Virus record (IMG/VR): IMGVR_UViG_3300020583_000010
Coordinates: 62,001 to 126,000 of that record
Reading direction: 5' to 3' (one strand)
Length of the DNA: 64,000 nucleotides
From: a virus
Shown here: piece by piece, positions 2,664 to 26,618 of the stretch
How positions within the stretch are numbered: the stretch's first letter is position 1
Layout of the letters: each line of letters starts with the position of its first letter
Notes under the pieces: generated by a model
Databases searched by the model: none
Seen by the model: the letters and a program-made list of their open reading frames with translations, nothing else
Told to the model about the DNA's origin: nothing
Program-made: the position numbers and the translations under genes

Positions 2664-2685
2664 ATTCACTCCTTAGTTGGAGCTA

Positions 2686-5451: not shown

Positions 5452-5481
5452 ACTACCCTCCTAGCTGTGACTATTGGATTG

Positions 5482-9216: not shown

Positions 9217-9226
9217 TTAATTTATC

Positions 9227-9724
9227 TCACTTATCATTATAAGGTTGGATCTGAAATGTTCTAAGCCATGTTCTATGATCTTGTAATATGTCATTTATGC
9301 CTCTAAAGGCTACCTTTATAACATCGGAGGCCTCATCTAGCAGGGCTAAAACTTCTTCTGCCTGACGTAGTTTTCTACGGCTGTCTAGCACTGCTAAATC
9401 TGCTTCCGCATACCTCTCACGAGGCCCTTCGTACTGATCTCTATTGCGGGCAGAAGACTTTTTCATGTCTACTATAGCAGTAGACCATTTATCATCTACT
9501 GATGCTTTTAATACGGCCACATATCTAAGTACCTTAGATCTTCTTCGTAAGATCTTTATACTTATCTCTTCTACACGATCTGACTTTGCCCTAGCATCTA
9601 GTAAAGAGTCTAGTACTATCTGTGGGATAGCTTGTGATGACGGAAGACTAACTTCTAACCTTAACTGTAGAACCTCATCTAACAGATCAGCTATGCCAGA
9701 AGTTAATTCATCCAAATAAGTCAT
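9227..9724 (-). CDS. hypothetical helical protein
   Basis: 165 residues, predicted almost all alpha-helix, with basic patches (LRRRSKVLRYVAVLK, ARNRDQYEGPRERYAE). No family recognised. Placed between the SSB and polymerase genes with no gap to the next gene, so a replication accessory role is plausible but unproven. Confidence 0.7.
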   Translation of the reverse strand: MTYLDELTSGIADLLDEVLQLRLEVSLPSSQAIPQIVLDSLLDARAKSDRVEEISIKILRRRSKVLRYVAVLKASVDDKWSTAIVDMKKSSARNRDQYEGPRERYAEADLAVLDSRRKLRQAEEVLALLDEASDVIKVAFRGINDILQDHRTWLRTFQIQPYNDK

Positions 9725-10024
9725 CTATGCCTTAGTTGCTAGCGCAATCTTACTTTTAACAAGACCTGTTAAATCTTGTAACCTGATTGCTAGAGCTCTT
9801 GGAACATCTAAGTCTCTAGCCTTCAAAGCTAACACATACTCTACTGTCAGTAGTCTTTCAGCTTCTGCTGAAAGTATAGCATAGGCAGTACTTAATGTCA
9901 AACTTTCTGGTGACCTATCATTCTCAAGAAGGAGTCTTAATAAGTCATCTTCATCTAGTTCAACATCAACTTTAGCCCAGCTACAAGACTTTAACTCCTC
10001 AGAAAATCCTTTTGTTACCTTCAT
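9725..10024 (-). CDS. hypothetical helical protein
   Basis: 99 residues from the ATG that overlaps the polymerase stop (GCATGA). Mostly helical with alternating acidic and basic patches (ELDEDDLLRLLLENDRS; LAIRLQDLTGLVKSKIALAT). No family recognised. Start chosen for the ATGA overlap; five extra in-frame codons upstream would lie inside the polymerase gene. Confidence 0.7.
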   Translation of the reverse strand: MKVTKGFSEELKSCSWAKVDVELDEDDLLRLLLENDRSPESLTLSTAYAILSAEAERLLTVEYVLALKARDLDVPRALAIRLQDLTGLVKSKIALATKA

Positions 10025-12039
10025 GCTACCAACTCCCACTTACCAGTTTCTGTCTTATGAATATCTTTACAAGATCCCCAGCGTTCCCAGGTATGCCAGT
10101 CTGCCACCATATCTGGCCATCCCTGAACTGGGAAGACCACCGCTGGTTCTAGGAGTGAACACACTGTATCTAGATCTACACTCTTGTGCACATAGAATTC
10201 TAGAGCATCATGTATATTCATTACTAGATGAATTTTATCCGCCAGACCTGCTGCTTTTATAGCTTTAGTGGCCCGGACCATGGCAATCTTAGGTACATCT
10301 CCCGTAGCTGATCCTTGAATCACAGTATTGAAGGCCATTCTATCAGCCTTACCCTGGGCATAATGACTCTTATCCTGATAATCCCAAATAGTCATCTTGC
10401 GCCCGAATTTTGTTATGGAATATCCATTCTTACGGCCTAGTTGCATACACTTATCAATATATCTCTTGATATTTGGATAGGCCGCATACCATCTATCTTG
10501 AAGATCCTGCGCTTCTTCTTCAGAAGTTCCCATACTCTCAGCGAGTGCCTTAATTCCCTGCTGATATACTGTTGCAAAGTTTAGAGTCTTACCTCTTTGC
10601 CTTTTAACAGGATCTACCTGATCTGCTGGTATCTGGAACATAAGCATGGCACTTTTAACATGGACATCCTCACCGTTAGCAAATGCCTCCAAAAGAGCAG
10701 TCTCATTAGCCTCGCCAGCAATCGCTCTCAACTCTGCTTGCCCGTAGTCAAACCCGACAGCGTAGTAATCCTCAGGACATACTACGGCATCACGAAAACA
10801 GAACTCTAGAAAGGCGTTGCCAGACTCATACCGTGTCATTTTCTTACCGGCTAAAGGTCCTTCTTTATATGAGATATTGCCCCCTGGTAATTGCTGATAA
10901 CCAGGTTTAGATACTGAGAATCTTCCAGAGATTACAAATACTTGATGATGACTAGGATGTGTTAGACCCTCATGCTCAATATCATAACTGAAGTCTCTCT
11001 CATACTTATCGAGATATGATCCTATTAGTTTATTAACTTCTCGCCACTCTAGCAAACTTCGTATTACTGGGTGTTTCTGAGCTAGGCCTTCTAGAGCAAC
11101 CGTGTCTGTTGACATTTTGGGCTCAGTAGAGTCTCTAGTACCCTTAGTGTACCTAGTAGTAGAAAATCCCAGTCTGTTATATAAAAGATTTTGTACTTGA
11201 GCAGGTGAGTTAAGGTTTACAGTGACTGGTTCTCCTAGCATCTCTGAGAAAGTATCCTGAATATTGGATAGTTGTATATCTTTGAATACTTTAGCATGCT
11301 CACTTACATCTCTCATGAACTTCCAGTCGAAGTAAACTCCAAATCTTTCCATTTCATACACTACATAGAGGACTTGCATCTCTAACTTGTATATGAAATG
11401 ATCTTTCACAATAGGGTAGTGTTTATTATGAAGCGCAAGAGCCCACAGAGCATCTTCACAAGCGTAGTCTATTACTTTAGAATTCAACTCAAGCACGTTG
11501 AACCGTATAATACTCTTCTTACTGTCAGGAAGATCTGGAAAGAGTTCATGAATCTCGGTCATTTGATGTCCGAATATTTCAAATACTAATTTCTTAAGTG
11601 CATTACTCTTATAGGCAGAGACTATAGCAGCTTCTATCAGAGTACATGAAAATATTGGGAAAGGTTCTTTTCCTACTATTTCTATACCAAGATACTCTAT
11701 AAGCCAGGGAACTAGGAAACTTAACTCGAACTTTGCATTGTGAGCTATTACTAAACCTGACTTAAGAAGTGGCCATATAATCTCAGCTACTTCTTTATTG
11801 TCTAAGTTCTCTTCAGCATAGTCATGCCGTAACGGTATATATCTAGCCCAATCAGTTGAATTAGCTACACTTATTCCTACTACAAAGCCTTCTTGCGGAT
11901 GAGTGGCCGCGTCTTTCCTGTCAGGACCATCATACCCAGTCTCAATGTCAAGGCCCACAGGTGTTCCTTCAGCTAGGAACTTGTCCACTATGGACTTTAG
12001 CTCTTCTAGTGTGTGCACTAAGCCGTAATTACGAAGCAC
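10021..12039 (-). CDS. family A DNA polymerase with 3'-5' exonuclease domain
   Basis: 672 residues without a 5'-nuclease domain. Exonuclease motifs are VGLDIETGYDG (Exo I), IAHNAKFELSFL (Exo II) and DYACEDALWAL (Exo III). Polymerase motif A is VGFDYGQAELRAIAGE and motif B is RQRGKTLNFATVYQQG, with Arg, Lys, Phe and Tyr at the expected spacing. Motif C is NIHDALEFYV: the usual H-D-E triad reads H-D-A. This is the likely replicative polymerase, working with the phage clamp and clamp-loader-like proteins in the same block. Start ATG overlaps the upstream gene by 11 bases. Confidence 0.92.
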   Translation of the reverse strand: MLRNYGLVHTLEELKSIVDKFLAEGTPVGLDIETGYDGPDRKDAATHPQEGFVVGISVANSTDWARYIPLRHDYAEENLDNKEVAEIIWPLLKSGLVIAHNAKFELSFLVPWLIEYLGIEIVGKEPFPIFSCTLIEAAIVSAYKSNALKKLVFEIFGHQMTEIHELFPDLPDSKKSIIRFNVLELNSKVIDYACEDALWALALHNKHYPIVKDHFIYKLEMQVLYVVYEMERFGVYFDWKFMRDVSEHAKVFKDIQLSNIQDTFSEMLGEPVTVNLNSPAQVQNLLYNRLGFSTTRYTKGTRDSTEPKMSTDTVALEGLAQKHPVIRSLLEWREVNKLIGSYLDKYERDFSYDIEHEGLTHPSHHQVFVISGRFSVSKPGYQQLPGGNISYKEGPLAGKKMTRYESGNAFLEFCFRDAVVCPEDYYAVGFDYGQAELRAIAGEANETALLEAFANGEDVHVKSAMLMFQIPADQVDPVKRQRGKTLNFATVYQQGIKALAESMGTSEEEAQDLQDRWYAAYPNIKRYIDKCMQLGRKNGYSITKFGRKMTIWDYQDKSHYAQGKADRMAFNTVIQGSATGDVPKIAMVRATKAIKAAGLADKIHLVMNIHDALEFYVHKSVDLDTVCSLLEPAVVFPVQGWPDMVADWHTWERWGSCKDIHKTETGKWELVA

Positions 12040-12454
12040 TACCAGATTCCTTTAGTTTTCTCAAGTCAAAATGTAAATTAATAAGTTCTGTTTGTAGCTC
12101 ATGTACTTTTTCTTCTGTTTCTTTTTTCTCAGTTGTATGTTCTACTATTAATCTCTCATTTTCATTTATTAAACTACTTATTTTATCTTCTAACAAAGTT
12201 TTTACTTCTCTAAACTCTGAGGCTTGTCTCTTCTTTGATTCCTCAACCTCGTCTAGGCCATGTTGTAGTAACTCATTAACTCTAGCTACATTACCCAATT
12301 CTAGACTTTGAAGAATGTATGGTTCCCGTCTTTCATTACGCCTATCAGCATTCTTAGCCGTCTTCTCAAGTCTTTTTGAGGTCCAAAAGTTATAGAGTAG
12401 TACAGTCGCGCCAGAACTACCGACAGCGCTAGCTATACCCACTAAGTCAATCAT
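12029..12454 (-). CDS. membrane-anchored coiled-coil protein
   Basis: 141 residues. One N-terminal hydrophobic segment (LVGIASAVGSSGATVLLYNF, about residues 4-23) is followed by a long charged coiled coil (ENERLIVEHTTEKKETEEKV). It looks like a single-pass membrane protein with a cytoplasmic rod. A spanin or membrane-tether role cannot be decided. A GGAAGG ribosome site precedes the ATG; two tRNA genes lie upstream. Confidence 0.7.
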   Translation of the reverse strand: MIDLVGIASAVGSSGATVLLYNFWTSKRLEKTAKNADRRNERREPYILQSLELGNVARVNELLQHGLDEVEESKKRQASEFREVKTLLEDKISSLINENERLIVEHTTEKKETEEKVHELQTELINLHFDLRKLKESGSAS

Positions 12455-12484
12455 CGCACTTTGGACCTTCCAGCATTATTCAAG

Positions 12485-12557
12485 CTCAGGGTATAAGATT
12501 CGAACTTATGACCTTGGGATTAACAATCCCCTGCTCTGCCGACTGAGCTAACCCTGA
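12485..12557 (-). tRNA. tRNA-Asn (GTT)
   Basis: Folds by eye with acceptor TCAGGGT/ACCCTGA, D-arm AGCTC..GAGC, anticodon loop TTGTTAA (anticodon GTT), T-arm with GTTCGAATC and discriminator G. CCA is not encoded. One G-A mismatch at the outer end of the anticodon stem. Confidence 0.9.
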
Positions 12558-12579
12558 TAGATATTATATTTTAGACCAG

Positions 12580-12630
12580 GTATGGTGTCCTCGTATCATA
12601 TGTCCTGCTGTTGATCTAGCAACACCATAC
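12580..12630 (-). repeat. tRNA-like hairpin remnant between two tRNA genes
   Basis: A perfect 9-bp inverted repeat (GTATGGTGT/ACACCATAC) encloses 33 nt that contain a smaller TGCT..AGCA stem. Read on the minus strand it resembles an acceptor stem and D-arm without a T-arm. Could be a decayed tRNA or just a processing hairpin. Confidence 0.4.
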
Positions 12631-12653
12631 TAATTCCCCTAAATCTTCTTGAG

Positions 12654-12724
12654 CTTTCGGCCAGAGATTCGAACTCCAATTGTCGGTACCAGAAACCGGT
12701 GTCCTGCCATTAGACGAGCCGAAA
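12654..12724 (-). tRNA. tRNA-Gln (CTG)
   Basis: Acceptor TTTCGGC/GCCGAAA (7 of 7 pairs), anticodon loop TTCTGGT (anticodon CTG), T-arm with AGTTCGAATCT, discriminator G. CCA not encoded. One C-A mismatch at the outer anticodon-stem pair. Confidence 0.88.
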
Positions 12725-12727
12725 CCG

Positions 12728-12749
12728 AAGGATGCTGTACAGCATCCTT
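12728..12749. repeat. 22-bp perfect palindrome
   Basis: AAGGATGCTGT directly followed by its reverse complement, four bases from the 5' end of tRNA-Gln. With no loop or T-run it is a poor terminator. More likely an RNA-processing hairpin or a protein-binding palindrome. Confidence 0.5.
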
Positions 12750-12917
12750 TGGAGATAAGGATCACGCTCCTAAGCCGAAGGACTAATTTCAAAGGCAATC
12801 GACATAGGGCCATCCCCCTCTCTGTTAATCTGAGTGGAGGACAAACGTCCCTTGTTATATACTACCATGAAGCCTCCAAGGTGTCTAGATCCTAGGCTTA
12901 CTTTTCTAACATCGACT

Positions 12918-13838
12918 CTACCACATGAGCACTAGTACCTCCAGAATGCCTTCTGATATGCCTTGACGGTAGTAAGACTCAAGGTAAGCCAGTACCTGGT
13001 GATTTCTTACTAAGTCAGTATAAGAGTATCTTTTAAAGACTGGCAGCAATGAGCTAATTCTATACATAGGAATATTTGTACCTGCGTCTAGTTTAGAATT
13101 TGCAGGTATTTCTTTTAGTTTTTCTATTAACCCTAAACTGTAATCTAAATATGACAACACAGCGCCCACAGAAGAAGCCTGTATTGTTGAAATGGCTTTT
13201 ATTGCTGAGTTTTTATCTCTTTCCAGCAGCGCTTGACTAAACTCTACTGGTGTTTCTTCATCTAGACTCTGAATAGTGTCTATATTTAGTTCTATATCAG
13301 TCATTTCAGGCAGTAATGTTTTTATCTTTTTACAGACATCATAGGTGGCTAAAAGATTTCCATTTTTGTATTCTAATAGTCTTTTTGCTGTACTGTCTGA
13401 AAGATTTCCTATACTAGACACCCAACTTAACTTATGCTCTAGCTTAGCCATCACACATTTTATAACTACAGCCCTAGGAGTTTTCATAGCCTTATTATCA
13501 GATTCTTCATTAGCTACTAATAGAAGAACTGTTTCTGGACTATATTTTGAGTACTTAGCAAGCCAGTCAGTTAGCCTAGGAGCGTCACTGAGTTTCTCTG
13601 CATTTATAATTTCTATAAATCTAAAAGAACCATCAGTCAAGGACCGACTATACACAGTATCCCATATCTCAGTCTCTGGATCACAAGCAGCATCAAATGC
13701 ATAAGTGTCTAAAGGCAGTGCGGCAGTTTCTTTTTTAATAAACTGTCTCACCTCTTTAATAAGAGCCTCCTCAGGTCCGTATACCCAATTTACTCTTCCT
13801 ATCTTAGCACTCCTAGCCCATTGTGTATAAGTACCCAT
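12918..13838 (-). CDS. DNA polymerase III delta-like clamp-loader subunit
   Basis: 306 residues. The start of the ATPase-like fold reads VNWVYGPEEALIKEVRQF, the HolA pattern (degenerate P-loop region, E-x-x-L/I). Later segments TDWLAKYSKYSPETVLLLVA and the all-helical C-terminus with SVGAVLSYLDYSLGLIEKL also fit delta. Delta opens the sliding clamp; the clamp gene is at the left end of this block. It sits one gene from a delta-prime-like gene, so the pair probably acts together. No gamma/tau ATPase gene is in the window. Confidence 0.78.
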   Translation of the reverse strand: MGTYTQWARSAKIGRVNWVYGPEEALIKEVRQFIKKETAALPLDTYAFDAACDPETEIWDTVYSRSLTDGSFRFIEIINAEKLSDAPRLTDWLAKYSKYSPETVLLLVANEESDNKAMKTPRAVVIKCVMAKLEHKLSWVSSIGNLSDSTAKRLLEYKNGNLLATYDVCKKIKTLLPEMTDIELNIDTIQSLDEETPVEFSQALLERDKNSAIKAISTIQASSVGAVLSYLDYSLGLIEKLKEIPANSKLDAGTNIPMYRISSLLPVFKRYSYTDLVRNHQVLAYLESYYRQGISEGILEVLVLMW

Positions 13839-13846
13839 TGTGTGAT

Positions 13847-14218
13847 TTAGATTATGCCTCTGAGAGCTTCCTGAGGTATTCTGGAAGGGGAAATACCCTC
13901 AAGTAGCGTCTGTCGTCTCTGCTGAGTTTCTGCCTCTTCTACTTGAGCTTGTGCTGTATTCAGAGCCATGTCTAGAATGTTAGACACCATAGTCTGAGTC
14001 ACTATCTCTAACTTCAACTGATGCTCTTCATCTAGTAGCACTGATACTAAAGCACTAAGTCTGGCATGAAAGAAGTTTAATGGATTAACACTAGCGTTAA
14101 ACTTTGCAGCTAGCATCTCTTCCCTAGATGAGTTATTACTTATAAGCTCCTCGACCTGTTCCTTTAACTCATCAATAGTTCCGTCTATAGCCTGACTGCC
14201 CACTGCCTCTTCTGTCAT
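13847..14218 (-). CDS. hypothetical helical protein between clamp-loader genes
   Basis: 123 residues, helical, with an acidic N-terminus and the basic end PSRIPQEALRGII. No family recognised. It overlaps the delta-prime-like gene by four bases and lies eight bases from the delta-like gene, suggesting stoichiometric co-expression with them. Confidence 0.68.
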   Translation of the reverse strand: MTEEAVGSQAIDGTIDELKEQVEELISNNSSREEMLAAKFNASVNPLNFFHARLSALVSVLLDEEHQLKLEIVTQTMVSNILDMALNTAQAQVEEAETQQRRQTLLEGISPSRIPQEALRGII

Positions 14219-14916
14219 TTTATGCCTTTCTGAGATACTATGTATGCCATTAATAGTGATGTTACTACTCTTTTTTCATCTGCGAACTTTAATGTCTCTA
14301 AAGCCTCTAATAATGACCAGGCAAAGGTATTTCCTAACCCCAAACCTTCTACATCTATACTAGAGAATATTTGAAATCTTTTTGATATACTTTCGTAGCA
14401 CCATATCTTTAGTAATTTTGTGTCTGATGCAGCCCATGAGACCATCGAGTCTCTAAGCAGCTTCTTCTCGCTAAGAGCGGTAGATGCTAATACTTTTAGT
14501 ACTTTTGTTTTACTCTCCACCGTACTATCTGTATTGTCAAAGACTCTCAGTACTTGACATCTAGAGATACATGTATTAATTACCCATGATTCACTAAATA
14601 TTACTATTTTTGCATAGCCTGGAGGATTGTCAAGCACAGACAATAATGAACTCTGAGCACTAGATGATACTCCCGTTAAATTTATTACAACTAACTTGGT
14701 TTTCCCATATGGGGTTAACTGTATAAAGTCTTTAATATTTTGCAGTGTCTGTGTATCTATGTCAGGCACTACTAGTGTGTCTTCATTTAATAAAGCAAGA
14801 TCAAAGTACAGAGTATCTAGAATATTACTCAGAGTCTCTTCTGAGAGTATGCCTTTTATGAGACAGGGTTGCTGTGAACTAGTTATAAAGTTAGAGATAT
14901 TATCTATATCAGGCAT
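14215..14916 (-). CDS. DNA polymerase III delta-prime-like clamp-loader subunit
   Basis: 233 residues. VVINLTGVSSSAQSSLLSVL followed by DNPPGYAKIVIF and CISRCQVLRV reproduces the conserved delta-prime/gamma block (sensor-1 helix, E-x-P-P-like turn, S-R-C-Q). There is no Walker A lysine motif, as expected for delta-prime, and no zinc module. Shorter than bacterial HolB (about 330 residues), lacking much of the N-terminal region. It would need an ATP-hydrolysing gamma/tau partner, possibly from the host. Confidence 0.75.
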   Translation of the reverse strand: MPDIDNISNFITSSQQPCLIKGILSEETLSNILDTLYFDLALLNEDTLVVPDIDTQTLQNIKDFIQLTPYGKTKLVVINLTGVSSSAQSSLLSVLDNPPGYAKIVIFSESWVINTCISRCQVLRVFDNTDSTVESKTKVLKVLASTALSEKKLLRDSMVSWAASDTKLLKIWCYESISKRFQIFSSIDVEGLGLGNTFAWSLLEALETLKFADEKRVVTSLLMAYIVSQKGIK

Positions 14917-15493
14917 TCAATTTCTCTTCTTCCATAACTTTATGTATATATTGTTTTGCCACTTCTAACCACTTAAGAGCTTCTTTATCTGATGTTGCCT
15001 TGTCTAAGATCTCATATAATTTAGTAATCACTCTAGTTATTGTATTATTATACTGCACAATACCCCAGTTCCGGGGGTTAATGGAGTAACAGTACTCCAT
15101 TAATGAGTCTCTATAGACTGTTCTATCTAAAATTATAGGAGGATCTATAGCTTCTTGCCACTTTTCCTCAAATGTCTTTGGTTTATGGCCTATTTGTTCT
15201 AGCAGATCAAAAGCAGCAAGCCTATATGATATCTCTCTGAGTTTAGCATACACAGATACAGGAGTCATAGTACCACACCCCATAAAACAATTTCCTGTGT
15301 TTGTTTCCGAGTATACCCTCATACTCTTTGATGCATCTCCATCTAAATGGTACATATCTGCATAGGGACATCGGGCTTTAACAGATTTACTATGAGTAAA
15401 CTCTGGAACATATATATTAAACTTACTTAGTACATATCTTAGAGGAACTAGTCTGTTTGCTGTCTGTACTAAAGATTCAACTCTCTGAGTCAA
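14909..15493 (-). CDS. primase zinc-binding-domain protein (DnaG N-terminal-like)
   Basis: 194 residues. ARCPYADMYHLDGD, then NTGNCFMGCGTMTPVSVYA, match the C..H..C-x-x-C zinc ribbon that starts DnaG-type primases. The catalytic TOPRIM domain is absent: the remaining 110 residues are helical without acidic TOPRIM motifs. It may recognise priming sites for another catalytic subunit or recruit host primase. Overlaps both neighbours. Confidence 0.72.
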   Translation of the reverse strand: MTQRVESLVQTANRLVPLRYVLSKFNIYVPEFTHSKSVKARCPYADMYHLDGDASKSMRVYSETNTGNCFMGCGTMTPVSVYAKLREISYRLAAFDLLEQIGHKPKTFEEKWQEAIDPPIILDRTVYRDSLMEYCYSINPRNWGIVQYNNTITRVITKLYEILDKATSDKEALKWLEVAKQYIHKVMEEEKLNA

Positions 15494-15701
15494 GAAGATC
15501 CATCACAGATGTCACGGCAGTATCTAATCTTATAGCTGCATCTTCTAGCTGCCCATACTTCTGCCAAGCTTCGTTGCTGCTCTCAAAGTTTCCTACACGC
15601 TTAGCTGTTCTGTATGCCTGATAAGCCTCTTCGGCTTTCATTTGCAGCTCTGAACGGAGCTCCGCAGGTGTTGCGGACTTTAGTCTAGTTGAGACGCTCA
15701 T
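15477..15701 (-). CDS. hypothetical small helical protein
   Basis: 74 residues, one long amphipathic helix set (AEEAYQAYRTAKRVGNFESS). Overlaps the genes on both sides by about 17 bases. No family recognised. Confidence 0.65.
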   Translation of the reverse strand: MSVSTRLKSATPAELRSELQMKAEEAYQAYRTAKRVGNFESSNEAWQKYGQLEDAAIRLDTAVTSVMDLLDSES

Positions 15702-15936
15702 TGTCTATTTCCTGACTATTAGAAGCTAGAAGTTCTACACCCCTACATTTATAACATAGCCGGAGTGGTTTATCTTCTTGTATCCATTCCCAGTCTCTGC
15801 GCAGCGGAGCTCCACATATAGGTCCAAACCCTACTGGATCTATATAATGTGCTACTTTGCCGCCAGGTGCCTTGCGCTTATAGTACCAGATATCACTAAG
15901 AGAGGTACCAGCGAAAGGATTATAAGGAACATCCAT
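15685..15936 (-). CDS. hypothetical zinc-ribbon-like protein, first gene of a sub-operon
   Basis: 83 residues with cysteines at GPICGAP and RLCYKCRG, a likely small zinc site. Preceded by a consensus-like promoter at 15943 and a 14-bp inverted repeat whose loop contains the start codon, so it is the regulated first gene of the primase/clamp-loader segment. Function unknown. Confidence 0.65.
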   Translation of the reverse strand: MDVPYNPFAGTSLSDIWYYKRKAPGGKVAHYIDPVGFGPICGAPLRRDWEWIQEDKPLRLCYKCRGVELLASNSQEIDNERLN

Positions 15937-15958
15937 AAGTCTATGGTACCTCTCTTAG
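15896..15958. repeat. 14-bp perfect inverted repeat around a start codon and -10 box
   Basis: CTAAGAGAGGTACC at 15896-15909 and its exact reverse complement at 15945-15958. The right arm covers the -10 box of the promoter below; the left arm lies inside the first codons of the gene. Looks like a paired operator. Confidence 0.7.
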
Positions 15959-15971
15959 TGCATTCTGTCAA
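15943..15971 (-). promoter_or_regulatory. promoter for primase/clamp-loader segment
   Basis: Minus strand TTGACA, 17 bp, TACCAT, just upstream of the gene starting at 15936. Consensus -35; weaker -10. Confidence 0.65.
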
Positions 15972-15980
15972 GGGGTAATA

Positions 15981-16532
15981 CTAATTACCATAAGTTCCGC
16001 ATACAGGCCATGCTCCTATACCCTGACTGGCCAGAACTGCGTTAGCCACAGTCTCTTGGTCGCCTTGACTAGCCTGGTTCGGGAACTGCGCGTAAAACCC
16101 CCCGCCATAAGCTAGCCATGTGCTCTCAGTAAACTGAAGGCCACCATAGAAGCCATTACCAGTATCAGCTGACCAGTCACCTGATGACTCGCAAGAAGCT
16201 ATGGCATCCCAATTAACAGTACTGGAGCTAGCAGTCTGGGAAGAGTTCTCAATGTTAACAATCGGTTGGTAAACAGTAGGTGAGCTAGGAGTGCTAGTCA
16301 CACCACCTAGTTTAATCACTTCTCCTGGATAGATCAAGTTTGGGTTATTCAAACTATTGATATCTCTAAGATACTGCCATGAAGTGCCATGGCTAGCAGC
16401 AATGATGGATAAAGTCTGCCCTTGTCTCACTGTCACAGAAGTATCTGCGAGAGACACTGAGGCAGTACCTACAACAACTGCCATGGCAACTACAGGGATA
16501 GAAATAAACTTAACAGCTCGGGACTTCAACAC
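15981..16532 (-). CDS. secreted LysM plus Rpf-type transglycosylase protein
   Basis: 183 residues. The signal peptide has a hydrophobic core [17 protein letters not shown] LysM domain follows ([16 protein letters not shown] ... [12 protein letters not shown], about residues 33-77), then a linker, then a resuscitation-promoting-factor/lysozyme-like domain starting [19 protein letters not shown]. In that domain the Glu of CESSGDW is the expected catalytic acid. Such proteins bind and cleave peptidoglycan outside the cell. The start is GTG (TTG next). It has its own promoter and interrupts replication genes, so it may be a host-wall remodelling or lysis-aid enzyme rather than part of DNA metabolism. 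Confidence 0.9.
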
Positions 16533-16612
16533 TAGTTGATTACCTTTGCTCCGTGTTCGCCATACGTCTAACGCGCAAGTCCTAGTGACTCCCGGGCGAA
16601 TCTCGTTAGAGG

Positions 16613-16641
16613 ATCATACCACAATCAACCCACGGCTGCAA
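16613..16641 (-). promoter_or_regulatory. promoter for LysM/Rpf gene
   Basis: Minus strand TTGCAG, 17 bp, TATGAT, with GTGG before the -10, identical there to the promoter at 5482. About 80 bp of 5' leader precede the GTG start. The rest of the 16533-16726 gap shows nothing else. Confidence 0.65.
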
Positions 16642-16726
16642 CCACTTCGAGTGTTACATCATAGTAAGGAAGCACTTCTAGCACTATACAGTCCATACTC
16701 TCGAATGGGTTCATTATCTGGCTCTC

Positions 16727-17032
16727 TTAAGGTTTAAGAATGAAACTTGAGTATTCCCAAGCAGAATAAGGACTCTCTGAAAGCACACCCTGATAGTGCC
16801 ACTTGCCCCCAGTCCAGCCGGTAGTAGTAATGACTCCTGTGTACTTATTCTGGTCGGGGTCGAAAGTTCCCGTACATGTATAGTCTACTACTCTGTCAGA
16901 TGGGTTGTACTCTGGATCTTTTGGCGGAGCATAGAAGTTAAATACGCAGGTAGGATTAGATATTGGCAGTTTTGTTACTCTATCGAAGGCTTGAGCTGTG
17001 ACTGTTATAGTCATCCCTGAGTATAAACTCAT
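16727..17032 (-). CDS. hypothetical beta-sandwich-like protein
   Basis: 101 residues with alternating beta-type sequence (MTITVTAQAFDRVTK ... GVITTTGWTGGKWHYQG), reminiscent of an immunoglobulin-like or carbohydrate-contact domain. Overlaps the histone-like gene by four bases. No family recognised. Confidence 0.65.
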   Translation of the reverse strand: MSLYSGMTITVTAQAFDRVTKLPISNPTCVFNFYAPPKDPEYNPSDRVVDYTCTGTFDPDQNKYTGVITTTGWTGGKWHYQGVLSESPYSAWEYSSFILKP

Positions 17033-18276
17033 TTAGACATCCTAGCTCTGGCTATCATTAGCATATTTTCTGGATCTTTTGAGAATCCCACTTTAGCAAC
17101 TCTTTGAGCCTCTGAAGCTAGTCTATCTACTCCATGCCGTGTTTTAAGTAATTCATGGAATCCTGCTGGGGTATGATGAATGCCTGTTATATGAGCATGA
17201 CGTAAACGAGCTGCATCTTCTAGAGCTCTGTGCTCTTCTGACAGATGATCAGAGGGAGATTTCACAGGAGACGTGGTTTTACTATCTCTGTCTTGTGTAG
17301 GTTTAGCACTGCTAGACCTTGGAACTACACTACTGCCTCTACGAGTCAAAGAGGAGCGCACCAAAGTTCGCAGAATCGGATGACTCCTACCTAACATTCT
17401 AAACCCGCCACCGCGTGGACGTACAGACCTCAAAAGGCTGGCCGCGCGTAGAGCTCCTAGAGCTTTTGATGCAGTACTAGTGGGGGACTTAGCCGCTGCC
17501 GGTGCTTTTGGAGCAGCTGCCTTAGGTGTTGTAGCAGCTTTGGGTGTTGTAGCAGCTTTGGGTGCGGCAGTTTTAGGTGTAGTTGTTGCTGTACTCTTAG
17601 GGGTCGTTGTAGTCGATTTAGTTGTTGATGTACTCTTAGGAGTTGTTGTAGTAGCTTTAGTTGCAGTAGTCTTAGAAGTAGCAGACTTTGTAGTTCCTGT
17701 ACTTTTAGTTGAAGTAGAGGTTGTCTTTGACTTGGTGGCAGCCTTTGAGGCAGCTGTCTGAGCTTTAGCCTGAGCTGTTTTAGCGGCGGCCTGAGCTTTT
17801 GCCACTGCTGCTGCGGCTGAAACGGCCTTAGCTTGGTTAGCTGCGGCAGCTGCCTGTGCTGCCTTTTCAGCTGCTATAGCTTTATTCTGTTCTGTTACCC
17901 CGGCCGCCGCTGCTTTAGTACCGGCATTCAAAGCTGAGTTAGAAATAGCTGGAGAAGACTGAGGAGCAGCCGTATAAGGCGTAAAAGGAGTTCTACCTAT
18001 AGTGGAAGAACCGACAGTGACTGTATTCTTTGATCCCATAGCTTGAGCTACTGATTTGTTGGCCTGATTAGCCTGCCGAGCTCCTGACAACCCTTGTCTT
18101 AAGGTACCACCAGGATTTGTAACACCATATTTTGGTCCTGGTGCCCCACGAGTAGCTGGCCGTACTGTTACTGCTTTACCTGTAGGTGATGATTTAGTGT
18201 ACTGGCGTACATTAACCTGACCGGACTGAACAGCGAGCTCTATAACCTTTTCTAGGTCACTTTTTTCTTTAGGCAT
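17029..18276 (-). CDS. histone H1-like Lys/Ala/Thr-rich protein
   Basis: 415 residues. The middle (about 140-280) is low-complexity Ala/Lys/Thr sequence with repeated TTPKS, AAPKAA and SKTT units, like the tails of bacterial histone-H1-like proteins. The flanks are basic (SLLRSVRPRGGGFRM; RSSLTRRGS) and the C-terminus ends in a helical segment with His and Arg. It would bind DNA non-specifically. Whether it compacts phage DNA, masks it, or is packaged is unknown. Next to the DnaB-like helicase gene. Confidence 0.7.
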   Translation of the reverse strand: MPKEKSDLEKVIELAVQSGQVNVRQYTKSSPTGKAVTVRPATRGAPGPKYGVTNPGGTLRQGLSGARQANQANKSVAQAMGSKNTVTVGSSTIGRTPFTPYTAAPQSSPAISNSALNAGTKAAAAGVTEQNKAIAAEKAAQAAAAANQAKAVSAAAAVAKAQAAAKTAQAKAQTAASKAATKSKTTSTSTKSTGTTKSATSKTTATKATTTTPKSTSTTKSTTTTPKSTATTTPKTAAPKAATTPKAATTPKAAAPKAPAAAKSPTSTASKALGALRAASLLRSVRPRGGGFRMLGRSHPILRTLVRSSLTRRGSSVVPRSSSAKPTQDRDSKTTSPVKSPSDHLSEEHRALEDAARLRHAHITGIHHTPAGFHELLKTRHGVDRLASEAQRVAKVGFSKDPENMLMIARARMSK

Positions 18277-18317
18277 AGGATATCTCCCTGTAGGTATAGC
18301 TACAAAGAAAATATCGG

Positions 18318-19760
18318 TTACAGTCCCAATCCTAGATTTAGTAATGCTGTATTAGCAGCATGTTGTGTTCTGCCTGAGTCAGTGTAAAAGCAAGTGGCAT
18401 AATCTACATCAATATCAAAAGGAGGTGCTTGCTCTCCATCACGCCATTTAACTACTGACATTGATAGTTTATTACGTTGTTGAGACTCTAGTATTCCTAT
18501 AACACCATCAGCATAGCGCTCAGCATATGAAGTCTCAGCCAGAGCTGACATTCCATAGTAACCTTCTCTGTCTGCGTCTTCCTTTGCCTTACGGCTAGCC
18601 TGCCAAGGAGACACCACAGCCAGTCCATTGCCGTTGTCAAATGTTTTTGCTAAGATCATAGCCTGTTCGATGCGCTCATTTAGTTGCTCGCGATCAGAAG
18701 CTCGTCTAGTTTCTGGTTTAAGAATGTATAAAGCGTCTACTATCAGCAAGTCTATAGGAAATTCTCGCTGTATTGCCTGAAGTCTTACTTTCATACCATT
18801 GACAGTCATAGACTCTGACGCCTGCATGACTCTTAGTTTGCCATAATCTTCACTATGAGAGAAGTCATGTACTACTTCACGTAATTTTTCTTCAAGCTCT
18901 GCGTCTAGATTACCTCTTTTTAGATCTAGAGAGTTCAATCCTTCTGCTAGTCCGAATTTCTTTAATCTGGAATGTCTTGATACTAGTTTTCTTCGTATCT
19001 GTGACCTCAAAGTCTCTGTGGTCACATAAACTACATTCTTTTTCTGCCTTACAGCGGCCTGCCATGCTAGTTGACAGCACAATGAACTTTTTCCAGCACT
19101 TGCATAGCCTAAAATAAAGTCCAATTCTCCAGGCTGTAGACCTCCAGTAATAGAGTCTAACTTAGGAATGCCGAATTCAATACCTGAGAACTCTCCTGAT
19201 AGAAAACTTTCCTTCTTACTCTCATACTCAGACAGCATGTCGTCTTCTTCTTCACGGATATCACCGTCTGGAGCCTCTTGTACTGTGAGTCTTTGGTCAA
19301 TAACCCCTAACTGAGCCATAACATACTCTCTAGCGGCTTCATGCCCTTTAACTTCATTACCCTTGGAGTCTTCTATACCTCTTGTTAGTATATCCATGCC
19401 CTGCTTAAAGGTACGTTTTACACTAGACTGGGCATATAACTCATTTAACTGGTGCAGTGACCACTTAAAGTCAGACTCTGAGGACTTCTGGCTCATTAAA
19501 GAGTCATATGTAGTCTGATATAATATTACCTTATTAGTCTCAGCAGACGGCAACTTTGCCAGTATTGCCTCAATGGCATTCTTAGTAAGAACATCTCCTG
19601 CATAGTCATAGTACCACTTAAACATTTTAAAGAAATGGCGCCATCTATCCTCTGGAAAATGATCCTCTGTAAGTTTTGTCAGCACTGTTTCTAGAAGATC
19701 CCTGCGGTCAGGAACTACCGCAGAAAAAAGTGCCCTAGCGTGGTCAGAAGAATCTACCAC
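18318..19760 (-). CDS. DnaB-like replicative helicase
   Basis: 480 residues. The N-terminal half is helical as in DnaB. The RecA-like motor has Walker A LGYASAGKSSLCCQ (near 217), a motif with TTETLRSQIRRK (H1a-like Glu), Walker B IDLLIVDALYIL (near 330), and VVSPWQASRK (motif H3-like Gln). It would unwind the fork for the family A polymerase. Phage-type variant; the assignment to DnaB rather than another RecA-like helicase is moderate to good. Confidence 0.82.
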   Translation of the reverse strand: MVDSSDHARALFSAVVPDRRDLLETVLTKLTEDHFPEDRWRHFFKMFKWYYDYAGDVLTKNAIEAILAKLPSAETNKVILYQTTYDSLMSQKSSESDFKWSLHQLNELYAQSSVKRTFKQGMDILTRGIEDSKGNEVKGHEAAREYVMAQLGVIDQRLTVQEAPDGDIREEEDDMLSEYESKKESFLSGEFSGIEFGIPKLDSITGGLQPGELDFILGYASAGKSSLCCQLAWQAAVRQKKNVVYVTTETLRSQIRRKLVSRHSRLKKFGLAEGLNSLDLKRGNLDAELEEKLREVVHDFSHSEDYGKLRVMQASESMTVNGMKVRLQAIQREFPIDLLIVDALYILKPETRRASDREQLNERIEQAMILAKTFDNGNGLAVVSPWQASRKAKEDADREGYYGMSALAETSYAERYADGVIGILESQQRNKLSMSVVKWRDGEQAPPFDIDVDYATCFYTDSGRTQHAANTALLNLGLGL

Positions 19761-20300
19761 TTATACTACTTTCAATAGGTAATTAATTAGATTTTCCAAG
19801 ACTTGTATGTTATCCCCCACCATACCAAGAGCACTGTTACAATTTATACACAGAATTCCTCTTATGCACTGTCCACAAGATTTCTTTCCCGAGCAACAGG
19901 AATGATCATGATCTACACTTAGAAAATTCCCGCTGTCTTCTATATATCTACCACACCCGCCAGCGCAACCTCCCTGGCTCTCAAGAATTTCTGTGTACCT
20001 TTTAAAAGAAAGTCTGTATACGCTTAGTAATTCACTGCATTGATTACATATTTTTCTAGTTCTTATGAAATTAGTACCTGGCCTAAATCTTTCACAGTCT
20101 CTATACCATTTTTCACCTTTTTCATTTATAGGTTGAAATGATCTAGTAATTTCATGTTTTAACCTGCCATTAATGGGTGTTAATGGTTTTCCTGCCCTAT
20201 ACTGCTGATAATGAGTGCCACATAAGTCTTTAGCCCAGAAGATATTAGTACATCCACTAAAGCTACACGGTCTTTCTACTCGTGCATTCTTTCTGACCAC
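19761..20300 (-). CDS. HNH endonuclease, recombination endonuclease VII-like
   Basis: 179 residues. Cysteine pairs (CSFSGCTN, CGTHYQ, KICNQC) precede the core SVDHDHSCCSGK followed by CIRGILCINCNSALGMVGDN, the zinc-supported endonuclease VII fold with catalytic His. The family cuts branched DNA in T4. In actinophages similar free-standing genes are often mobile. It lies tightly between the helicase and phosphoesterase genes with no overlap, unlike its coupled neighbours, which suits insertion. Confidence 0.8.
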   Translation of the reverse strand: MVRKNARVERPCSFSGCTNIFWAKDLCGTHYQQYRAGKPLTPINGRLKHEITRSFQPINEKGEKWYRDCERFRPGTNFIRTRKICNQCSELLSVYRLSFKRYTEILESQGGCAGGCGRYIEDSGNFLSVDHDHSCCSGKKSCGQCIRGILCINCNSALGMVGDNIQVLENLINYLLKVV

Positions 20301-23287: not shown

Positions 23288-23476
23288 ATGTTCGTAGCCG
23301 TTATCGAGATATTGAGAAGGCCTGAATGCCTGATCACTGCGCATAGCTATGACTCCCTGCTGGCTAAGTTTCGCAGTCTTCAGCGCATCGCCAGGCGTGA
23401 TGGCTTCGAGCCTGATATGATACTTCTTCAAATAATTCCCGCAAAAGACTTGACAGCTGACCCTCCCTTGTGTTAG
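23288..23476 (+). CDS. hypothetical basic protein
   Basis: 62 residues (AKFRSLQRIARRDGFEPDMI in the middle). Weak GAAAG ribosome site. The opposite-strand ORF over the same bases is less likely because the flanking genes run rightward. Its end overlaps the strong promoter at 23450. Confidence 0.5.
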   Translation: MFVAVIEILRRPECLITAHSYDSLLAKFRSLQRIARRDGFEPDMILLQIIPAKDLTADPPLC

Positions 23477-23479
23477 TGT
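23450..23479 (+). promoter_or_regulatory. promoter of the RNA-repair operon
   Basis: TTGACA, 18 bp, TAGTGT, close to the Streptomyces housekeeping consensus (TTGACN / TAGRRT). The leader to the ligase start is about 250 nt. Confidence 0.72.
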
Positions 23480-23500
23480 TAAGTCACACATTGGTCTACT

Positions 23501-23524
23501 TAAATACGTGACCTATTCGTGACT
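23501..23524 (+). promoter_or_regulatory. leader motif shared with 37001-37024
   Basis: TAAATACGTGACC followed by CTATTCGTGACT. The same two blocks occur in swapped order at 37001-37024. It lies about 20 nt downstream of the predicted start of the RNA-repair transcript, a likely regulator site. Confidence 0.5.
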
Positions 23525-23687
23525 GGACAGCATAGCCAGACTCTAGACATAGAGTAAAAGATATCCGGAAGCTAGGGGCAGCCGGAATCGGAATACCAGA
23601 GCCACTCCATCTCAAGCTCAGGATTGCGACCAGCGTCTTACTTTTAAGCTCTCAACTGGGAAGTTGACCTTGGAGGTAAGGAGGCGC

Positions 23688-23720
23688 ATGTCGTTTTCCA
23701 AAACATCCTCTCAACAATAA
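23688..23720 (+). CDS. possible 10-residue leader peptide
   Basis: ATG preceded by AAGGAGG encodes MSFSKTSSQQ and stops 17 bases before the RNA ligase start. The ribosome site is the strongest in the leader. Could couple or attenuate ligase translation, or be chance. Confidence 0.35.
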   Translation: MSFSKTSSQQ

Positions 23721-23737
23721 TCACGCGCGAGGGACTA

Positions 23738-24937
23738 ATGCACTTATCAGAATACCTTGACCTGGCCGAACTAGGCAGTGAGATTGAGAATGGCTTTATT
23801 CGTGAGGCTAAGCATGAGACTCTTCCTCTGACTCTGTATACTTATACGGAAAAAGCTCAGTATGCCGGACTATGGCCTGATGCAACGCGTAAGTGTCGTG
23901 GGTTGGTTGTCGAGGACACCGGACAGATCATAGCTAGGTGCCTCCCGAAGTTCTTCAATTACTCTGAGCATGTGAACGGCAAAAGTTATGCACCTCCGTT
24001 AGAGCTTGAAACCGGATTGGAGTCTGCTTTCGAGATATATTCTAAAATGGATGGTTCATATGGGTCGTGCTTTTTCTATGATGACAATTGGCATGTTGCC
24101 AGTAAGGGGTCATTCCATTCAGAGCAGGCAGAATGGGCTACAAAGTATCTTCGCAGAGCTATATTTGATTCATGGGAAGATAGTCCTTTTGCAGAGAAGC
24201 GGAATGGCACATTTGATCCACTTAACAGGCAGAAGACATACGTATGTGAGATAATCTATCCTTCCAATCGTATCGTGGTGGACTATGGAAGTCTTGAAGA
24301 TCTGGTTCTTCTTACAGTGTATGATACTGAGACAGGCCAGGAAGAGTTCACTGAAGATCGTAGATTAGAATGGGGTTGGGTAGGTTCTATAGTCCCCTCG
24401 TATAATCCTTGGGGTATTAATCTAGACGAGCTACAGTTGCTAGCGGAGGAGAATGTTCTTCTAGATGAGGACAATGGTGACCGTGAGGTGTCTGGAACTG
24501 CTATGGAAGGTTATGTCGTAAGACTAAGTGATGGCACCCGCGTGAAGATAAAGTTGAGTGACTACTTACGTCTGCATAAGGTGTTGACCAACTGTACAGA
24601 GAGATCTATCTGGGAAATTCTTTCTACAGGTGGAAGTCTTGATGACTTTATGGAGAACACACCTGATGAGTTCCGTGACTGGGTGAACTCTACAGTATTG
24701 TGCCTGAAAAATGACTTCGAGATGCTTAAGAATAATGTCTACCACACTTATTTCAATATTTTTCCAAAGGCGATGTCAGACGGCGGAACAAGAGCAAAGT
24801 TCGCTGCTCTCGCTAAGGACACAGAGTTTCCTTCTGCCATGTTCATGATGCTCGATGCTAGCGAGGCTAAATTAAATGAGTGGTTATGGAAGCAGATTAA
24901 GCCAGAGGCTACAAAGCCATTCACCAAGGCGGAATAG
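23738..24937 (+). CDS. T4 Rnl1-like RNA ligase
   Basis: 399 residues. Nucleotidyltransferase motif I is IYSKMDGSYGSCF (K-x-D-G, near residue 103). Upstream is the Rnl1-type block ATRKCRGLVVEDTGQIIARC and PKFFNYSEH. Motif IV is MEGYVVRLSD and motif V RVKIKLSDYLRLHK (near 265). It seals 3'-OH and 5'-phosphate RNA ends with ATP. With the Pnk-like gene two places downstream it reconstitutes the T4 tRNA-repair pair that reverses anticodon-nuclease cuts. First gene of the RNA-repair operon; a GAGGG site precedes the ATG. Confidence 0.9.
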   Translation: MHLSEYLDLAELGSEIENGFIREAKHETLPLTLYTYTEKAQYAGLWPDATRKCRGLVVEDTGQIIARCLPKFFNYSEHVNGKSYAPPLELETGLESAFEIYSKMDGSYGSCFFYDDNWHVASKGSFHSEQAEWATKYLRRAIFDSWEDSPFAEKRNGTFDPLNRQKTYVCEIIYPSNRIVVDYGSLEDLVLLTVYDTETGQEEFTEDRRLEWGWVGSIVPSYNPWGINLDELQLLAEENVLLDEDNGDREVSGTAMEGYVVRLSDGTRVKIKLSDYLRLHKVLTNCTERSIWEILSTGGSLDDFMENTPDEFRDWVNSTVLCLKNDFEMLKNNVYHTYFNIFPKAMSDGGTRAKFAALAKDTEFPSAMFMMLDASEAKLNEWLWKQIKPEATKPFTKAE

Positions 24938-25362
24938 TGTTTACCTTAATTGTCACAGGGTCACGCTGGTCTCTGTCTGTGCCTACTCAGCTGCGTGTAC
25001 GAAGTACTTTAGGCCTGGTGGCTTATAGGATGTGCCCTACTGGAGGTCTTCTGAAGCACGGGGAGGCCACAGGAGTTGATTCTTATGCTTCAGTATACTG
25101 GAATCGCCTTGGTCCTGAGTTCGCTGTTCAAGGCTTTCCCTATATCTCCTCACTAGGCAGACGAGGAGGACCTGTTCGCAATCAACAGATGGTTGATAGC
25201 GGAGCTGACTTGTGCTTGGCTTATCCGTCAGCAGGCTCTAAGGGTACCTATGACTGTGCTAATAAGGCTAAGAAAGCAGGAATACCCACTTTTATTTTAG
25301 TTAACAGCTCAGATGACGCAGAACTTGAACACTGGTTAGTTGCCAATCAACGTCTTACGTGA
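24937..25362 (+). CDS. SLOG-fold (YspA/cpYpsA-related) protein
   Basis: 141 residues, GTG start sharing a base with the ligase stop. LIVTGSRWS at the N-terminus, GLLKHGEATGVDSYASVYW near residue 45, and a GGPVRNQQM plus SAGSKGTYDCANKAKKAG block near 80-115 form the Rossmann-like SLOG pattern. SLOG domains bind nucleotides or nucleotide-derived ligands and are predicted sensors or processors in phage-conflict systems. Its position between ligase and kinase-phosphatase suggests a role in RNA repair or in sensing a defence signal. The substrate is unknown. Confidence 0.78.
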   Translation: MFTLIVTGSRWSLSVPTQLRVRSTLGLVAYRMCPTGGLLKHGEATGVDSYASVYWNRLGPEFAVQGFPYISSLGRRGGPVRNQQMVDSGADLCLAYPSAGSKGTYDCANKAKKAGIPTFILVNSSDDAELEHWLVANQRLT

Positions 25363-25374
25363 TAGGATAGCGGG

Positions 25375-26328
25375 ATGGACAAGGAAAATAAGCCAGTAGT
25401 ACGTATAATGACAGGGCTACCTGGGTCAGGCAAGAGCACAGTAGCTAAAGAACTGCCTGGCCTGAGAGTGTGTCTTGATGACATCCGTTTAATGATGGGA
25501 TGGACAAGTCAGGCTTCTTGGGATAAGGGCAAGGAAGCTGTGGCTATTGAGACCATGATGAGTGCCATAGAAGGCGCTATAGAGGAAGGTCATGACGTGA
25601 TAGCTGATAATACGCACCTCACGGCTAGACTTCCCGGAATCATGCGTAGACGTGTAGGCGGAAGAGCTACTTTCCAGGTGTGCTCTCTGCTAGATGTACC
25701 TATTGATGAGTGTATCAAGAGAGATGCTAGCCGTGAGCGCTCAGTAGGTGAGCAGGTTATTCGCAAGATGGCTAAAACTGCCTCAAAGTGGAAACTAACT
25801 GAGGAGTATATGAATGTCTGGCCAGACATAGAGCCGGTGGGTCCCTACCTCATGGGAAAGCCTGAGTGTATAATTGTAGACCTTGATGGTACTGCGGCTA
25901 TCCATAATGGAAGAGGACCTTTTGAGACTACTAGGTGCGATGAAGACTTAGTAGACAACTCTGTGTCCTGTATTGTATTTTCTTATGACCTTATGATGGA
26001 TGAGTTCCGTAAGTCCTTAGGGGATGAACTTCAGCATAAGATAATATTTCTGTCGGGTAGAGAAGGTACTGAAGAAGTTCGTGGTAAGACACTGAAATGG
26101 CTTCTTGATGATTTTGGAGTAGCTGATCTTACCGAAGGTTGTTGGGAATTATTCATGCGAGCCGAAGGCGACAGTCGACCTGACTTCATAGTTAAGTATG
26201 AACTGTACAATAAGCATATAAGAGGACAGTTGAATCCAATATTCTCGCTAGATGATCGTAATCAGGTTGTACGACTGTGGCGTGAACTTGGTCTTAAGTG
26301 CTTGCAGACAAACTGGGGTAACTTCTAG
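25375..26328 (+). CDS. T4 Pnk-like polynucleotide 5'-kinase / 3'-phosphatase
   Basis: 317 residues. Kinase domain first: P-loop TGLPGSGKSTVAKEL (near residue 14) and VIADNTHLTARLPG. HAD phosphatase follows: IIVDLDGTAAIHNGRGPFET (near 165), IIFLSGREGTEE (near 225) and FSLDDRNQVVRLWRELGLKC (near 290). Same domain order as T4 Pnk, including the N-G-R-G-P block. It heals RNA ends (removes 2',3'-cyclic or 3' phosphate, adds 5' phosphate) for the ligase at 23738. Ribosome site GATAGCGGG is weak; likely coupled to upstream translation. Confidence 0.92.
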   Translation: MDKENKPVVRIMTGLPGSGKSTVAKELPGLRVCLDDIRLMMGWTSQASWDKGKEAVAIETMMSAIEGAIEEGHDVIADNTHLTARLPGIMRRRVGGRATFQVCSLLDVPIDECIKRDASRERSVGEQVIRKMAKTASKWKLTEEYMNVWPDIEPVGPYLMGKPECIIVDLDGTAAIHNGRGPFETTRCDEDLVDNSVSCIVFSYDLMMDEFRKSLGDELQHKIIFLSGREGTEEVRGKTLKWLLDDFGVADLTEGCWELFMRAEGDSRPDFIVKYELYNKHIRGQLNPIFSLDDRNQVVRLWRELGLKCLQTNWGNF

Positions 26329-26339
26329 AATGGAATCTA

Positions 26340-26618
26340 ATGGCTGATGAAATTGATGACCTAGACAAGACTGAGCCAGCAATCACTTATGTTCTGTTCG
26401 AGATATCAGTAGATGATTTCTCGGGGGAAAATCCTACAGAGGAATACCTGGCCGATTATGCAGCAGACTTCGCAGCCAGCATGACTAATTGGGTTATGAC
26501 AGACAGAGCTCTGATAACTTTTAAGGGAATTCCTCTGAAGAACTTCGTATATTATGATACTGAAGAAGAACTGAATGAGGCAAAAGGCGATCATGGATAC
26601 TCAGCTGAGATAGGTTAG
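26340..26618 (+). CDS. hypothetical acidic protein
   Basis: 92 residues, strongly acidic (DDLDKTEPA, NPTEEYLADYAADF). Last gene of the RNA-repair transcript, 11 bases after the kinase-phosphatase. Acidity could mean a DNA-mimic or inhibitor-type small protein, but nothing specific is recognised. Confidence 0.65.
   Translation: MADEIDDLDKTEPAITYVLFEISVDDFSGENPTEEYLADYAADFAASMTNWVMTDRALITFKGIPLKNFVYYDTEEELNEAKGDHGYSAEIG

What the first reader, a model, noticed from the sequence alone, without database searches (positions are those of the whole stretch)
23450..26328. RNA-repair operon with a SLOG-fold gene between RNA ligase and Pnk
Seen: a Rnl1-like ligase, a SLOG-pattern protein overlapping its stop, and a T4 Pnk-like kinase-phosphatase in one transcript with a strong promoter. 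Known: in T4 the ligase-Pnk pair repairs tRNAs cut by host anticodon nucleases, and SLOG domains bind nucleotide-derived ligands in conflict systems. Inference: the SLOG protein may sense or remove a defence-made nucleotide, or recognise a modified RNA end, making this a three-part tRNA-rescue system in a phage that also carries many tRNAs.
Basis: partly seen in the sequence, partly recalled or inferred. Interest (0 to 1): 0.82.

Follow-up and report, generated by a model that had tools for sequence, protein, structure and literature searches.

The report
Phage RNA-repair operon with inserted SLOG gene
A large phage carries the usual pair of enzymes that mend cut RNA, and a small nucleotide-binding gene has been slipped between them; that gene is a known, common phage accessory, and the nearest relative of this locus lacks it, so this looks like two counter-defence tools sharing one transcript and not a new three-part machine.

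Summary
23738-24937 encodes an Rnl1-type RNA ligase, 24937-25362 a 141-residue protein whose GTG start shares one base with the ligase stop, and 25375-26328 a T4-type kinase-phosphatase. The middle protein really is SLOG: 13 of 14 aligned family members match Pfam YAcAr (YspA-related SLOG), and a confident model (pLDDT 95.5) matches solved SLOG structures, including ThsA bound to 3'cADPR. The phage has 25 tRNA genes (8 in the window).

The conserved three-part system is not supported. The closest relative of the locus (L104: ligase 51%, Pnk 57-59% identical, same flanking genes) has ligase and Pnk but no SLOG in its 119-kb contig. Thirteen other contigs with ligase directly before Pnk have nothing between them. 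SLOG homologues occur in 684 phage records, mostly beside other genes (thymidylate synthase, PolA, deaminase). RNA ligases do sit next to SLOG in cluster L (another ligase family) and cluster M-like phages (RtcB), but overall proximity is only slightly above uniform placement and is not specific.

Most likely: an ordinary T4-like RNA-repair pair, with an independently acquired SLOG that handles a nucleotide-derived ligand, co-expressed as counter-defence cargo. The SLOG ligand remains unknown.

The parts
23450..23479 (+). promoter-like site: TTGACA (23450-23455), then TTAGTG/TAGTGT at 23473-23479
   Evidence: sequence; same kind of site upstream of the ligase in L104 at 5684 and a near copy at 61786 minus strand; not listed by the TATAAT-based scan
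23478..23737 (+). about 260-nt untranslated leader with a long hairpin (about 23621-23699)
   Evidence: RNA fold z=-3.4; leader of L104 also folds well, z=-2.4; no Rfam family; pair-level covariation between the two not shown
23738..24937 (+). Rnl1-type ATP-dependent RNA ligase, 399 aa, nucleotidyl-transferase motif K103-M-D-G-S
24937..25362 (+). free-standing SLOG protein (YspA/cpYpsA-related, YAcAr type), 141 aa, GTG start sharing one base with the ligase stop
25375..26328 (+). T4-type polynucleotide 5'-kinase/3'-phosphatase, 317 aa (P-loop GLPGSGKST; D169-x-D171-G-T)
26340..26618 (+). small gene of unknown function, 92 aa, probable fourth gene of the operon
   Evidence: homologue in the same place in L104; no significant Pfam or PHROG match

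Best explanation
This is a standard phage RNA-repair pair of the T4 kind, a ligase and a kinase-phosphatase, made from one transcript. It most likely reseals host or phage tRNAs cut by host anticodon nucleases: Pnk removes the 2',3'-cyclic or 3' phosphate and phosphorylates the 5' end, and the ligase adenylates and joins the ends (inferred from the families). Between the two, in this lineage, sits a free-standing SLOG protein acquired as an accessory gene. It most likely works on its own, binding or cleaving a small nucleotide-derived ligand, plausibly an ADP-ribose or cADPR-type defence signal, and shares the operon because all these genes act at the same stage of infection. Shown here: the three families, the SLOG fold, the overlap of the reading frames, the absence of SLOG from the same slot in relatives. 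Inferred: all activities, the tRNA substrate, the SLOG ligand and its independence from the repair enzymes.
For: Family assignments with catalytic motifs kept. SLOG fold and family. L104 has the same neighbours on both sides (minus-strand sigma factor, small minus ORF, ligase, Pnk, small ORF, minus ORF) but no SLOG, and none anywhere in its 119-kb contig. Its ligase-Pnk gap carries a short stretch resembling the start of this phage's Pnk (KPVVTVMAGL against KPVVRIMTGL, 0 of 500 shuffles), which fits past recombination at this junction. Ligase directly followed by Pnk without SLOG in 14 contigs counting L104 and Arthrobacter phage Bauer. The best viral-contig SLOG match by E-value (L025, 41%) is in a phage whose own ligase-Pnk pair lies about 76 kb away. 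In 52 SLOG lineages the neighbours are mixed, with thymidylate synthase and PolA at least as frequent as RNA ligase.
Against: SLOG lies closer to RNA-repair genes than uniform placement predicts (12 of 27 genomes within 7.5 kb, 5.3 expected; KS p=0.04), with three unrelated ligase families next to a SLOG in three phage groups. The phage has no Macro, NADAR or NUDIX protein, the partners with which viral SLOG domains tend to occur in the ADP-ribose scheme of PMC9503650. The one-base overlap would couple SLOG translation to the ligase, which hints at coordinated dosage.
Confidence: 0.62

Rival explanations
1. A three-part tRNA-rescue system: SLOG recognises or trims a modified RNA end, or senses a nucleotide made during tRNA attack, and regulates or assists the ligase and Pnk.
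For: Overlapping frames and one transcript. SLOG next to an unrelated RNA ligase in cluster L (Enceladus genes 82/83, L087, L096) and next to RtcB in L088 and L101. A ligase-Pnk-SpoU methylase-SLOG stretch in L239.
Against: No SLOG in the same slot in L104 or in 13 other contigs with ligase directly before Pnk. Only 2 of 40 ligase-anchored contigs hold a SLOG anywhere. SLOG neighbours are mixed and mostly not RNA-related. Proximity is only slightly above a uniform placement, which does not allow for both genes lying in the early region.
Confidence: 0.13
2. SLOG is a DprA-like single-strand DNA-binding or recombination helper, as annotators of actinobacteriophages name it, and is unrelated to RNA.
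For: Annotated 'DprA-like' in many records. Neighbours in relatives include PolA, SSB, RuvC-like, helicase and RecA genes.
Against: The family scores as YAcAr, with DprA (PF02481) matching only 3 of 14 members at best E=0.009. The protein is a single 141-residue domain without the extra domain of full-length DprA (general knowledge). No listed PDB fold match is annotated as a bacterial DprA.
Confidence: 0.15
3. SLOG is a nucleotide-metabolism enzyme of the LOG kind, cleaving nucleoside monophosphates to feed phage nucleotide pools.
For: Frequent neighbours of SLOG in relatives are Thy1/ThyA thymidylate synthase, dCMP deaminase, ribonucleotide reductase and nicotinate phosphoribosyltransferase. 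LOG and TM1055-type structures are among the fold matches.
Against: In this phage it sits with RNA-repair enzymes, not nucleotide enzymes. The motif is GSKGTYDC, without the PGGxGTxxE signature by which LOG enzymes are recognised (general knowledge).
Confidence: 0.1

Closest known systems
T4 Rnl1 plus Pnk tRNA-repair pair against PrrC
   Same: Same two enzyme families with catalytic motifs kept; Pnk aligns to T4 Pnk end to end, ligase to T4 Rnl1.
   Different: Genes adjacent in one transcript with a SLOG gene between them; the host nuclease and the tRNA substrate are unknown.
Ligase-Pnk operon of L104 (IMGVR_UViG_3300033545_000001) and of Arthrobacter phage Bauer genes 70-71
   Same: Same genes and order; L104 has the same flanking genes, the same type of promoter and a folded leader.
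   Different: No SLOG between ligase and Pnk; none in the L104 contig.
Phage YspA/cpYpsA-related SLOG proteins (YAcAr, often named 'DprA-like'), e.g. Mycobacterium phage Omega Q853Y9
   Same: Fold (Foldseek E=2.4e-11), conserved T7-G-S-R10, H41-G, G46-x-D48, R81-N-Q, G103-T residues.
   Different: The HPADW stretch of the consensus is FPYIS here; 25-41% identity to aligned members; unusual neighbours.
ThsA SLOG domain (Thoeris), bound to 3'cADPR (7uxs)
   Same: Same fold class.
   Different: ThsA is a SIR2-SLOG effector of bacteria; here the SLOG stands alone in a phage. Ligand not tested.
SLOG-RNA ligase gene pair of cluster L mycobacteriophages (Enceladus 82-83)
   Same: SLOG frame overlapping an RNA ligase frame.
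   Different: Reverse order and another ligase family (phrog_968, PF09414); Pnk about 3 kb away.

Membership tests
Rnl1-type RNA ligase (PF09511) | Match to the family profile over the catalytic domain | tested here: met
   67.6 bits, cut-off 28.3, profile positions 1-224 of 227
Rnl1-type RNA ligase (PF09511) | Lysine nucleophile in KxDGS and the other nucleotidyl-transferase motifs | tested here: met
   K103-M-D-G-S; EIIYPxNRIVVDYG, MEGYVVRL and VKIKL motifs conserved across six phage ligases; aligned to the T4 KEDGS
Rnl1-type RNA ligase (PF09511) | Seals tRNA anticodon-loop breaks | not testable with these tools
   needs enzyme assay
T4-type Pnk (kinase + HAD phosphatase) | Kinase P-loop and HAD DxDGT phosphatase in the T4 order | tested here: met
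   GLPGSGKST, D35, R38, D169-L-D171-G-T, S227-G-R229, D293-D294; aligned to 1ltq over its length
SLOG superfamily, YspA/cpYpsA-related (PF10686 YAcAr) | Profile match of the protein itself to PF10686 | tested here: not met
   No hit at E<=1 for the window protein alone; 13 of the 14 aligned family members match, best 8.7e-13. The model covers only 66 positions. So: SLOG superfamily member by homology and fold, divergent within the YAcAr family.
SLOG superfamily, YspA/cpYpsA-related (PF10686 YAcAr) | Sequence homology to accepted members | tested here: met
   32-40% identity to 13 members; tblastn hits in 684 phage records at E<=1e-5
SLOG superfamily, YspA/cpYpsA-related (PF10686 YAcAr) | Rossmannoid fold matching solved SLOG structures | tested here: met
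   pLDDT 95.5, pTM 0.90; TM1055, ShosA, Moco carrier, ThsA SLOG among the top PDB matches; named SLOG proteins among the top viral matches
SLOG superfamily, YspA/cpYpsA-related (PF10686 YAcAr) | Binds or cleaves a nucleotide-derived ligand | not testable with these tools
   family-conserved residues kept; ligand unknown
DprA | DNA_processg_A (PF02481) domain | tested here: not met
   only 3 of 14 members, best E=0.009; not the window protein; phrog_768 DprA-like E=0.03
Conserved three-gene ligase-SLOG-Pnk system | Same gene order in relatives | tested here: not met
   absent in L104 and in all 13 other contigs with adjacent ligase-Pnk

The most novel reading that the evidence does not exclude
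Phage SLOG proteins of this type have a direct part in RNA repair: they act on RNA ends or on a nucleotide by-product of tRNA attack, and have been recruited several times next to unrelated RNA ligases (Rnl1 here, a PF09414 ligase in cluster L, RtcB in cluster M-like phages).
Probability: 0.12. Interest if true: 0.72.

Novelty: new member of a known kind. Interest (0 to 1): 0.3.

Why it matters
If the SLOG took part in repair it would give a first function to a family found in 684 phage records here and named by guesswork. As it stands the locus is a further case of stacked counter-defence genes, and it supplies a clean natural comparison: two related phages with the same operon, one with and one without the SLOG gene.

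Tried and rejected
Single-protein scans of viral contigs gave three SLOG loci and nothing for ligase or Pnk; alignments were needed. PDB sequence search with the SLOG protein and its profile found nothing significant; the fold search did. Rfam found nothing in the leader. Covariation of the leader hairpin between the two phages could not be shown (3 compensatory, 11 broken pairs). The first neighbour survey used a gene caller that failed on GC-rich phages and was replaced. Considered and rejected: SLOG as a chance ORF (homology, ribosome site, fold), SLOG as DprA (profile), SLOG as part of a conserved three-gene unit (L104 and others). Macro, NADAR and NUDIX partners were sought in the same record and not found.

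Full report
What is there. The window is bases 62001-126000 of a 126,028-base virus record. On the plus strand, after a TTGACA site at 23450 and a leader of about 260 bases, come four ORFs: 23738-24937 (399 aa), 24937-25362 (141 aa, GTG), 25375-26328 (317 aa) and 26340-26618 (92 aa). A minus-strand ORF follows at 26668, so the transcript probably ends there. The ligase stop TAG and the SLOG start GTG share one base; AAGG- and AGGA-type ribosome sites precede SLOG and Pnk (sequence).

The outer genes. The first is an Rnl1-type RNA ligase (PF09511 1.8e-18; phrog_562 9e-58; T4 RNA ligase 1 structures) with K103-M-D-G-S and the other motifs conserved in five phage relatives. The third is a T4-type kinase-phosphatase (HAD_PNKP 1e-38, AAA_33 5.6e-13; T4 Pnk over residues 11-317) with P-loop, D35, R38, D169/D171, S227-G-R229 and D293-D294 in place. 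That these families mend anticodon-nuclease breaks in T4 is established knowledge; that they do so here is inference. The phage has 8 tRNA genes in the window and 17 in the rest of the record.

The middle gene. Alone it has no Pfam match. It matches phrog_289 (1.6e-16) and, by tblastn, 684 phage records, mostly of actinobacteriophages. Thirteen of the 14 aligned family members match YAcAr, the YspA/cpYpsA-related SLOG family. AlphaFold gives a confident model (mean pLDDT 95.5, pTM 0.90). The best PDB matches include TM1055, ShosA, the molybdenum cofactor carrier protein and the ThsA SLOG domain with 3'cADPR, and the best viral match is a named SLOG protein of phage Omega (E=2.4e-11, 1.5 A). 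Residues conserved in the family (T7, G8, R10, G42, D48, R81, N82, M85, G103, T104) are kept, while the HPADW stretch is lost. So SLOG is right, and 'DprA-like' is not the best name for this protein.

Is it a three-part system? The nearest relative of the ligase by sequence is in L104 (51%); its Pnk is 57-59% identical and the flanking genes correspond on both sides: a minus-strand sigma factor and small ORF upstream, a small plus ORF and a minus ORF downstream. L104 has no SLOG between ligase and Pnk and none in its 119-kb contig. Its 136-base gap instead holds an 18-codon remnant resembling the start of this phage's pnk (BLOSUM score 37; best of 500 shuffles 32), which suggests that genes have been exchanged at this junction. 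Counting L104 and Arthrobacter phage Bauer, 14 contigs have ligase and then Pnk within 150 bases without SLOG. One phage, G028 (L025/L207), has both a close SLOG match and a ligase-Pnk pair, about 76 kb apart.

Do SLOG genes favour RNA-repair genes in general? In 52 SLOG lineages, scanned two genes to each side, Pfam finds thymidylate synthases (4), PolA (3), dCMP deaminases (2), one PF09414 RNA ligase and one RtcB. The PF09414 case is cluster L mycobacteriophages, where SLOG overlaps the ligase; the RtcB case is L088 and L101. In 27 genomes with both kinds of gene, the nearest RNA-repair gene is within 2.5 kb in 5 (1.8 expected for uniform placement) and within 7.5 kb in 12 (5.3 expected); KS p=0.04. 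The positions were typed in, lineage independence is only approximate, and the null ignores that both genes lie among non-structural genes, so this is a hint and no more. Among 40 contigs found by their ligase only 2 have a SLOG; among 40 found by their Pnk, 13 do.

What is known. PMC9503650 surveyed viral SLOG domains and proposed that they sense or degrade ADP-ribose-type signals, as standalone proteins, with Macro, NADAR and Nudix proteins as frequent companions; its RNA-repair section names KptA and sirtuins, not SLOG. This phage has no Macro, NADAR or NUDIX match. PMC13148394 reports that the cluster L ligase and Pnk slow host growth when overexpressed. I found no paper in the library that describes a SLOG gene inside a ligase-Pnk operon; the library is partial.

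Conclusion. An ordinary RNA-repair pair with an accessory SLOG gene inserted in one lineage (loss in L104 instead of gain here cannot be excluded from two genomes, but the other ligase-Pnk pairs without SLOG favour gain). The SLOG most likely acts by itself on a nucleotide-derived ligand. The reading as a joint repair machine is not excluded, and the recurrence next to unrelated ligases in cluster L and M-like phages is the reason to keep it at about one in eight.

Noticed in passing
window 23478-23737; L104 5690-6000: The leader of the ligase transcript folds better than shuffles in both phages (z=-3.4 and -2.4) with a long hairpin at a similar place containing GGCGCAT; no Rfam family, and pairwise covariation not shown.
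   Followed up: partly
window 23688-23720: Possible 10-codon leader peptide (ATG TCG TTT TCC AAA ACA TCC TCT CAA CAA TAA) with AAGGAGG just before it, inside the 3' arm of the hairpin; the ATG is ATT in L104.
   Followed up: no
window 61786 (minus) and 23450 (plus): Two sites share TTGACA-N17-TTAG(A/T)GTTA, perhaps a phage promoter class; several other TTGACA sites are followed by TAC-type boxes.
   Followed up: no
window 49246-51411: 721-aa protein with signal-like start, a glycosyl hydrolase 16 domain and a phosphoesterase (PF04185) domain with Thr/Pro linkers, unusual for a phage and resembling secreted actinobacterial enzymes.
   Followed up: partly
L020 (record 1-20000) 8197-8270 minus: tRNA-like gene for which ARAGORN gives a two-base anticodon (ag), possibly an altered anticodon loop.
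   Followed up: no
L020 2601-5855 minus; L021 10938-18944 minus: The ribonucleotide reductase-like protein and the tape-measure-like protein each appear to contain an intein (CRPWEAL...KSHNT and CVPLDTM...LLTSN; reading).
   Followed up: no
L012 8469-8882 (Enceladus gene 82): The deposited start of the cluster L SLOG gene (8622) is probably about 150 bases too late; homology begins at 8469.
   Followed up: partly
L239 3918-8462: Ligase, Pnk, then a SpoU-type RNA methylase and a SLOG in one direction.
   Followed up: partly
L104 7231-7366: Short remnant resembling the start of the window's Pnk, ahead of the intact Pnk gene; a likely scar of gene exchange.
   Followed up: partly
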